Assembly: GCA_020849095.1 (NCBI GenBank)
Contig: JADLGX010000366.1
Location: 1 to 32,699, forward strand
Direction of reading: 5' to 3'
DNA from: Candidatus Eiseniibacteriota bacterium
GTDB taxonomy: Bacteria > Eisenbacteria > RBG-16-71-46
DNA length: 32,699 nt
Each line of letters starts with the position of its first letter. Within the stretch, counting starts at the first letter, position 1. The notes beneath the pieces were generated by a model. It worked only from the letters and a program-made list of their open reading frames with translations. It made no database searches and was not told the DNA's origin. Position numbers and translations under genes: made by a program. Positions 14,699 to 16,483 of this stretch are shown piece after piece.

Positions 14699-14780
14699 CG
14701 GCGCCGTGACCGCCGGCGCCTCGGGGCCGTGTTAGCATTCGCGCGCCGTGCACGCCGCCGTCCACTCCGGAGCCCTTCGC

Positions 14781-15260
14781 ATGCGTTCCACCCCGACGAA
14801 CCTCGTTCTCGCGCTCGCGCTGGCCCTCGCGGCCGTGGCCGCGTTTCCGGGCGCAGCGGGCCGGGCCTGCGCGCAGGGCGCGTCGCGGTTCACCTGAGTG
14901 CCGGACATGGTCCCGTCGGGACCAGTCGTGGATTCGGAGTTCGCGCTCTTCCACATGCAGCGCGCGCTGTGGGACCCCGTGGACCCCGACCGCCTGGGCT
15001 CTCTGGCGGACACGCTGCAGTACCGCGTGAACGGCGAGGTGTACCGCTTCGCCGACGAGCGCACGCTGCACCGCTTCGTGATGGCCCCGGCCCTGTACTG
15101 CGGGCTGGTGCGCGATCCGGTGAACGGCAGGCGGTTCCATCCCTCCACGCGCACGCCGGCCGCCTACTGGATCGGCGGCCCGTACTTCTTCTCGCACGAC
15201 TCCACCAAGGCCGCGTTCGTGGACGATCCGAAGAAGTACGAAGTGCTGCGCGCGTTTTGA
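14781..15260 (+). CDS. secreted YHS-like domain protein read through an in-frame TGA (14895-14897); candidate selenoprotein, otherwise disrupted gene
   Basis: ATG 14781 gives signal peptide MRSTPTNLVLALALALAAVAAFPGAAGRACAQGASRFT. TGA follows, then in the same frame VPDMVPSGPVVDSEFALFHMQRALWDPVDPDRLG...YRVNGEVYRFADERTLHRFVMAPALYCGLVRDPVNGRRF...PYFFSHDSTKAAFVDDPKKYEVL. Confidence 0.6.
14904..14927 (+). promoter_or_regulatory. bSECIS-like stem-loop just downstream of the TGA
   Basis: GAC-(A)-TGGTCCC-GTC-GGGACCA-GTC: 7-bp perfect upper stem, bulged A, 3 bp lower stem, 3-nt loop starting with G at 14915. 17 nt separate TGA and loop G. Confidence 0.5.
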
Positions 15261-15262
15261 TC

Positions 15263-16483
15263 ATGTCGCCCGGCCGCATCGCCCGCGCGGCGGCCGCCGC
15301 GGTGTTCACCCTGCTGCTGGCCGGGTGTGCCGGCGGGCAGGAGGCGCTGCCCGCGTTCTACCGCACCCGCCCCGTGTTCGAGCAGCCCTTCGCCCACCAG
15401 CGCGTGCCGCGCGGGCTCAAGACGCTGTCGGCCGCCGAGTGCGGCAGCTGCCACGTGCAGATCTACCGCGAGTGGCGCCAGTCGGTGCACGCGCAGGCGT
15501 GGGCCGACCCGCAGTTCCAGGGCGAACTGCACAAGCAGCCCGGCGTCAGCTGGCTGTGCATCAACTGCCACACGCCGCTCGTCAATCAGCTCGACTCGCT
15601 CGTCGTGAGGCTGCAGGACGGCGACGTCGAGCGCCCGGTGAAGGTGCGCAACGCGCGCTACGACGAGTCGCTGCGCGACGAGGCGATCACCTGCGCCAGC
15701 TGCCACGTGCGCGACGGCGCGGTCGAGGGGCCGTTCGGCGACACGCGCGCCCCGCACGCCGTGCGCAAGAGCGCGGCGTTTCGCAGCGCCGAGCTGTGCC
15801 TGCGCTGCCACCAGGCGGTGCAGACCTATCCGGGTAAGTCGTTCACGTGCACGTTCGACACCGGCAACGAGTGGAAGGCGGGCCCGTTCGCGGCGAACGG
15901 CGTGGTCTGCCAGGACTGCCACATGCCGCCGGTCGAGCGTGCGCTGGTCGAGGGCGGGCCGGTGCGCCGCGTGGGCATGCACGGCTGGATCGGCAGCCAC
16001 CTGCGCAAGGGCGGCGAAACGCTGCCGGCGCTGTGGGACTCGCTCGCCGCGCGCCGCCCGCCGGGCATCGAGCTGCGCGCGGACTCCGTGCGGGCCGCCT
16101 CGCCCGGCGCGGCGGTGGAGTGGACGGTGCGCGCGGTCAACGCCAACGCCGGGCACATGCTGCCCACCGGGGACCCCGAGCGCGCGGTGATCGTCACGCT
16201 GGCGGCGCTGTCGGCGGCGGGCGACACGCTCGCGCGCGAGGACGTGCGGCTGGGCCAGCGCTGGGAGTGGTGGCCGGCGCCGCGCAAGCTGGGCGACGAG
16301 CGGCTCGCGCCCGGCGCCGAGCGCGCGATCACGTTGCGCCTTCGCGCGCCCGCGGGCGCGTGGACGCTGGGGGCGCGTGCGGTCAACGAACGCATCAGCG
16401 ACGCGAACGCGGACTTTCACCGGCTTGCCGAAAGCTATCCGCGGCGCACCGAGGTGGCGCGCGTGGCGGTGCGCCCGCGCTGA
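15263..16483 (+). CDS. multiheme (five CxxCH) c-type cytochrome lipoprotein, cytochrome c554-like
   Basis: Lipobox LLLAGCAG. Heme motifs CGSCH, CINCH, CASCH, CLRCH, CQDCH. C-terminal GHMLPTGDPERAVIVTL segment. Confidence 0.9.
   Translation: MSPGRIARAAAAAVFTLLLAGCAGGQEALPAFYRTRPVFEQPFAHQRVPRGLKTLSAAECGSCHVQIYREWRQSVHAQAWADPQFQGELHKQPGVSWLCINCHTPLVNQLDSLVVRLQDGDVERPVKVRNARYDESLRDEAITCASCHVRDGAVEGPFGDTRAPHAVRKSAAFRSAELCLRCHQAVQTYPGKSFTCTFDTGNEWKAGPFAANGVVCQDCHMPPVERALVEGGPVRRVGMHGWIGSHLRKGGETLPALWDSLAARRPPGIELRADSVRAASPGAAVEWTVRAVNANAGHMLPTGDPERAVIVTLAALSAAGDTLAREDVRLGQRWEWWPAPRKLGDERLAPGAERAITLRLRAPAGAWTLGARAVNERISDANADFHRLAESYPRRTEVARVAVRPR

What the first reader, a model, noticed from the sequence alone, without database searches (positions are those of the whole stretch)
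14781..15260. Candidate new selenoprotein: signal peptide joined in frame to a YHS-like domain across a single TGA
Seen directly: ATG 14781 encodes a textbook signal peptide ending ...GRACAQGASRFT. A TGA follows at 14895-14897, and the same frame continues as VPDMVPSGPVVDSEFALFHMQRALW... to 15260. Without readthrough the signal peptide is a functionless 38-mer and the YHS-like protein has no export signal. The TGA falls where YHS/metal-binding proteins commonly have a Cys near the N-terminus, which fits a Sec/Cys exchange. The next gene is a pentaheme cytochrome lipoprotein, so a redox context is plausible. Other genes in the window use TGA as an ordinary stop, so global TGA recoding is unlikely.
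Basis: partly seen in the sequence, partly recalled or inferred. Interest (0 to 1): 0.9.

Follow-up and report, generated by a model that had tools for sequence, protein, structure and literature searches.

The report
New exported YHS-domain selenoprotein family
This gene reads through an in-frame UGA to make an exported metal-domain-like protein with the rare amino acid selenocysteine near its mature N-terminus; relatives in 15 genomes share the UGA, most with a matching RNA hairpin, and it matches no listed selenoprotein type.

Summary
ATG 14781 opens a signal peptide; TGA 14895-14897 follows in frame; the frame continues to a second TGA at 15258. All homologues found in 15 Candidatus Eisenbacteria genomes (aligned readthrough products 42-78% identical) have TGA at the same codon, in the motif (R)FT-U just after a diverging signal peptide. 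A seven-base-pair hairpin starts 10 nt after the UGA (10 loci tested), shows compensatory changes, partly at synonymous sites, and fits the published bacterial SECIS model. The genome has tRNA-Sec, SelA and a SelD that is itself a selenoprotein (SCAGU). SelB is missing from this fragmented assembly but present in close relatives. A sister family (three YHS-like units, FCUxxC) places its Sec at the same alignment column. It reaches four genomes outside the phylum and has TGC in four members, so Sec/Cys exchange is seen directly. The one YHS selenoprotein listed in the literature (NF041384, GxU motif) is another family with Sec elsewhere; the window protein scores 15 bits against its cut-off of 70. 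This is therefore a new selenoprotein subfamily. Function is inferred only: a periplasmic selenolate for redox or soft-metal chemistry. The cytochrome neighbour is not conserved.

The parts
14769..14772 (+). GGAG, probable ribosome-binding site 8 nt before ATG 14781
   Evidence: read directly from the sequence
14781..14894 (+). signal peptide and mature N-terminus before the UGA (MRSTPTNLVLALALALAAVAAFPGAAGRACAQGASRFT); likely cleavage after A-C-A
   Evidence: translation; the same arrangement in homologues, ending in (R)FT before TGA; cleavage site judged by eye
14895..14897 (+). in-frame TGA read as selenocysteine (residue 39)
   Evidence: TGA in all 15 genomes with a homologue; TGC at the aligned column in four sister-family members; Sec machinery
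14908..14924 (+). SECIS-type hairpin: 7-bp stem TGGTCCC/GGGACCA, loop GTC at 14915-14917, loop 17 nt after the UGA
   Evidence: fold; covariation, 98.6% of cells paired; synonymous-shuffle test; bacterial SECIS model in PMC13188914
14898..15257 (+). rest of the protein: spacer with two YHS-like units, the second being Pfam YHS at 15111-15239 (25.3 bits, under the 30.3 cut-off)
15258..15260 (+). true stop codon, also TGA
15263..16480 (+). multiheme cytochrome gene downstream; neighbour, not shown to be a partner
   Evidence: Pfam; adjacent only here and in the closest relative

Best explanation
The locus encodes an exported selenoprotein of a family not listed so far. SelB with GTP and Sec-tRNA(Sec) recognises the hairpin that starts 10 nt after the UGA and inserts selenocysteine at residue 39; translation goes on to the second UGA, which stops it. 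The signal peptide sends the product across the inner membrane, leaving Sec about 7-8 residues from the mature N-terminus of a small protein with two YHS-like units. Shown here: conserved UGA, covarying hairpin, most of the Sec machinery, and Sec/Cys exchange in the sister family. Inferred: actual Sec insertion, export, and function. The most likely function is a periplasmic selenolate that does thiol/selenol redox chemistry or binds a soft metal such as copper (about even odds between the two). It derives from a YHS metal site whose Cys ligands have been lost in this family, while the neighbouring Sec was kept.
For: TGA at the same codon in all 15 homologue genomes, downstream identities 45-87%. 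Hairpin 98.6% paired with five cells changed on both sides and covariation above all 500 shuffles; all seven pairs form in 9 of 10 loci, each improbable under synonymous shuffling; fits the bSECIS model. tRNA-Sec with anticodon TCA beside a selD encoding SCAGU, SelA 543 bits, SelB over the cut-off in three of four same-genus relatives and partial in the fourth. Sister-family Sec falls in the same column by MAFFT, with TGC in four members, and is found with TGA and tRNA-Sec in four genomes outside the phylum.
Against: No SelB in the window's own assembly; the MAG is 93% complete in 629 contigs and also shows no EF-Tu-like hit of the usual strength in that search, so the gap is weak evidence. 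No Cys form exists within family 1 itself; the exchange is seen only in the sister family. In the 1b subgroup (L028-L031) the hairpin is not in the same register and no common fold was established. No experiment; the structure model was too poor to use (pLDDT 39).
Confidence: 0.95

Rival explanations
1. The UGA is a real stop: a short signal peptide ORF is followed by a separately started cytoplasmic YHS protein (GTG 14898 or ATG 14907).
For: In the window GTG directly follows the TGA and an ATG follows at 14907; the ORF listing default finds the 120-aa ORF.
Against: No start codon is conserved: G019 (L020) has none in the first 25 codons, and many have only a GTG at codon 10-11. Signal-peptide frames upstream are kept in register with (R)FT before the TGA. 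No Shine-Dalgarno is seen before GTG 14898.
Confidence: 0.02
2. Pseudogene or sequencing error at one base.
For: A single in-frame stop is the usual look of both.
Against: The same TGA in 15 separately assembled genomes at protein identities of 42-78%, with third-position changes dominating downstream.
Confidence: 0.01
3. UGA is read by another route (near-cognate suppression, or a lineage-wide reassignment to Trp, Gly or other).
For: The frame is open under any code that reads UGA.
Against: The same gene ends in TGA; the codon is TGC, not TGG or GGN, in sister-family members; the Sec machinery is present and a SECIS-type hairpin covaries.
Confidence: 0.02
4. It is a member of the known YHS selenoprotein family NF041384.
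For: YHS-type domain, secreted, weak NCBIfam match.
Against: 15.1 bits against a cut-off of 70; two true NF041384 genes occur elsewhere in the same genome, with Cys; the listed motif is GxU and here it is FTU.
Confidence: 0.03

Closest known systems
YHS domain-containing (seleno)protein, NCBIfam NF041384 (GOS 'YHS domain protein'; PMC2398784, PMC13188914 Table 1)
   Same: YHS-type domain, signal peptide, Sec/Cys at a position tied to the domain
   Different: Sec motif is GxU; members in this same genome carry Cys in GGYCPVAY at the start of the domain. Here Sec follows F-T or F-C, and the score is far below the family cut-off.
YHS/TRASH metal-binding domains (e.g. M. phlei adenylyl cyclase, PMC4626032)
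   Same: The sister family keeps a Cys before PV and FC-x3-C, matching the D/C, C, C, C ligand pattern described there
   Different: Sec stands directly after the first Cys of the pair; in the window's family that Cys is Thr and the other ligands of that unit are gone.
Bacterial SECIS elements (bSECIS model)
   Same: Loop of 3 nt starting with GU, 7-bp stem, 17 nt from UGA to loop, MFE -21.8 kcal/mol
   Different: Not compared in sequence with the E. coli formate dehydrogenase elements; the review says that lack of sequence likeness is common

Membership tests
Bacterial selenoprotein | In-frame UGA conserved in homologues | tested here: met
   15 of 15 genomes
Bacterial selenoprotein | Cys homologues at the Sec site | tested here: met
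   TGC in four sister-family members at the same alignment column; none within family 1
Bacterial selenoprotein | SECIS hairpin just after the UGA | tested here: met
   not established for subgroup 1b
Bacterial selenoprotein | selA, selC, selD in the genome | tested here: met
   (selD named from its sequence, not by a family search)
Bacterial selenoprotein | selB in the genome | tested here: inconclusive
   absent from this assembly; over the cut-off in three of four same-genus genomes, partial in the fourth
Bacterial selenoprotein | Selenium in the protein | not testable with these tools
   needs 75Se labelling or mass spectrometry
NF041384 YHS (seleno)protein | Score over the curated cut-off (70 bits) | tested here: not met
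   15.1 bits
NF041384 YHS (seleno)protein | Sec in a GxU motif | tested here: not met
   motif here is FTU
Pfam YHS domain (PF04945) | Score over gathering cut-off 30.3 | tested here: not met
   25.3 bits full product, 26.8 bits downstream part, E 5e-6: YHS-like, below the curated cut-off
YHS/TRASH metal site | Four ligands (D or C, then three C) | tested here: not met
   family 1 lacks them; the sister family has the Cys pattern

The most novel reading that the evidence does not exclude
A metal-binding YHS unit has been pared down until only its selenocysteine is left: family 1 dropped most of the first YHS unit and its Cys ligands but kept Sec, now next to the mature N-terminus, as an exposed periplasmic selenolate with a chemistry of its own rather than as a helper to a metal site.
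Probability: 0.45. Interest if true: 0.7.

Novelty: new variant of a known kind. Interest (0 to 1): 0.62.

Why it matters
It adds an exported selenoprotein subfamily with a new Sec position to a 2026 review's list of 119 families/subfamilies. It indicates that Candidatus Eisenbacteria commonly use selenium. Gene callers will cut this gene at the UGA or start it late, so it is probably misannotated. It gives a concrete case where Sec outlives the metal ligands it stood beside, which can be tested.

Tried and rejected
AlphaFold model from the four sequences allowed: mean pLDDT 39, not used and no fold search run. PDB profile search: only a weak YHS-like stretch in adenylate kinase 9 and a ciliary protein. 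Conserved operon partner: none across family 1; neighbours differ between genera. Cytochrome as partner: rejected for lack of conservation. Rfam on the region: no credible hit. Regex search for NF041384 members gave nothing; replaced by ORF listing. Papers with Eisenbacteria and selenocysteine: none in the held library.

Full report
Observation. The sequence is as described: ATG 14781, signal peptide, TGA 14895-14897, frame open to TGA 15258-15260. A GGAG stands 8 nt before the ATG. The window lies on contig C367 of a metagenome-assembled genome of 4.48 Mb in 629 contigs, 93% complete; its nearest relatives in the named collection are Candidatus Eisenbacteria.

Conservation of the UGA. A search of 47 genomes of the phylum with the readthrough product, and inspection of the loci, found family 1 in 15 genomes, all of one taxonomic family (f1); every one has TGA at the same codon. 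The aligned readthrough products are 42-78% identical to the window's; over the part after the UGA the range is 45-87%. The upstream peptides diverge as signal peptides do but end in FT, FS, IT or FV before the TGA. No downstream start codon is conserved, and one genome (G019) has none in the first 25 codons. One locus (G035) has an additional TAG further on, in a genome of 80% completeness; it was not pursued.

SECIS. In ten family 1 loci a seven-pair hairpin starts 10 nt after the UGA. On the alignment 98.6% of cells pair; the outermost pair is CG, GC or UA, and the fourth is UA, UG, CG or GC; the covariation score exceeded all 500 shuffles, and slid registers lose it. The 3' partners of both varying pairs are third codon positions (of a Pro and a Gly codon), so the covariation is not forced by the protein. 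With codons shuffled synonymously, all seven pairs form with probability 0.003-0.04 in each of nine loci; the tenth has six pairs, 0.11. Loop GUC, 17 nt between UGA and loop, and MFE -21.8 kcal/mol meet the bacterial model given in PMC13188914. These tests ignore relatedness of the sequences, and the hairpin was found on the window sequence first. In subgroup 1b (L028-L031) no hairpin in the same register was found.

Machinery. The genome has tRNA-Sec (68.8 bits; ARAGORN anticodon TCA) next to selD. Read with UGA as Sec, that SelD has the SCAGUAAKLGP loop, which from general knowledge is its active site, so a second gene in this genome uses Sec. SelA scores 543 bits and lies at a contig end. 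SelB was not found: the own hits are below the cut-off and look like other translation GTPases. The same search shows SelB over the cut-off in 37 of 47 genomes; in the same genus three are over the cut-off and the fourth, G022, is a partial 202-bit match. In the phylum 39 of 47 genomes have tRNA-Sec over the cut-off at E 1e-8.

Sister family. More distant homologues have an extra N-terminal YHS unit with the motif GFCUxxC. MAFFT puts their Sec in the column of the window's Sec without guidance. Nine Eisenbacteria genomes have TGA there and four have TGC (G044, G038, G019, G035). G044 has TGC while two genomes of its own genus, G045 and G046, have TGA, and it still has the hairpin; this looks like a recent change from Sec to Cys, though the direction is inferred. 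The other three Cys members show 5, 4 and 2 of 7 pairs. The family also occurs in four genomes outside the phylum, all with TGA and tRNA-Sec. Its hairpin was tested apart; the support is weaker, because the protein sequence itself favours the pairs. In the tree family 1 is one group with 100/100 support.

What it does. YHS and TRASH domains bind metals through D/C, C, C and C (PMC4626032). The sister family keeps that Cys pattern with Sec right after the first Cys of the C-x3-C pair. Family 1 has Thr (once Ser, once Val) for that Cys and lacks the others in that unit, yet never loses Sec. A Cys in [YW]CG before the last unit is present in nearly all family 1 members but is Ala in L023, so a Sec-Cys pair cannot be the whole answer. 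I infer a periplasmic selenolate for redox or soft-metal chemistry. The gene neighbourhood does not help: the cytochrome is adjacent only in G000 and G020, and neighbours in other genera are unrelated to each other. The sister family in f11 sits by an M3 peptidase and a divergent thioredoxin-NHL gene.

Known or not. The 2026 review lists 119 selenoprotein families or subfamilies and counts a different Sec position as a separate subfamily. Its only YHS entry is NF041384 with GxU. The window protein scores 15.1 bits against that model's cut-off of 70, and the genome has two separate NF041384 genes, both with Cys. I call this a new variant of a known kind. The NCBI protein database itself was not searched.

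Noticed in passing
L047:7204-8400 (G000 contig C576): selD is itself a selenoprotein gene (SCAGU) and lies next to tRNA-Sec; a default ORF call starts it after the UGA.
   Followed up: partly
L039 (G044:C29): TGC replaces TGA in the sister family while the hairpin remains, and two genomes of the same genus keep TGA: a likely recent Sec-to-Cys change.
   Followed up: partly
SelB hits: In the window's family f1 the SelB match mostly ends near profile position 345-380 of 581, whereas families f8 and f11 mostly match to about 577: the C-terminal part that reads SECIS may have diverged there.
   Followed up: no
G000:C562:470-802 and G000:C221:2357-2689 (L142, L144): Two NF041384 YHS proteins with Cys, near-copies in similar neighbourhoods; possibly a duplication or two strains in the bin.
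   Followed up: no
L028-L031: Subgroup 1b has UxxxxC after the Sec and a possible different, closer GC-rich hairpin (by eye), with the loop about 12 nt from the UGA, under the 16 nt of the model.
   Followed up: no
L104, L106-L108, L110, L111: The sister-family gene keeps a conserved neighbourhood: M3 peptidase, divergent thioredoxin/NHL protein, CNNM-CBS protein.
   Followed up: partly
L026 (G035:C286): A TAG in the last YHS unit of this copy; pseudogene or assembly error.
   Followed up: no
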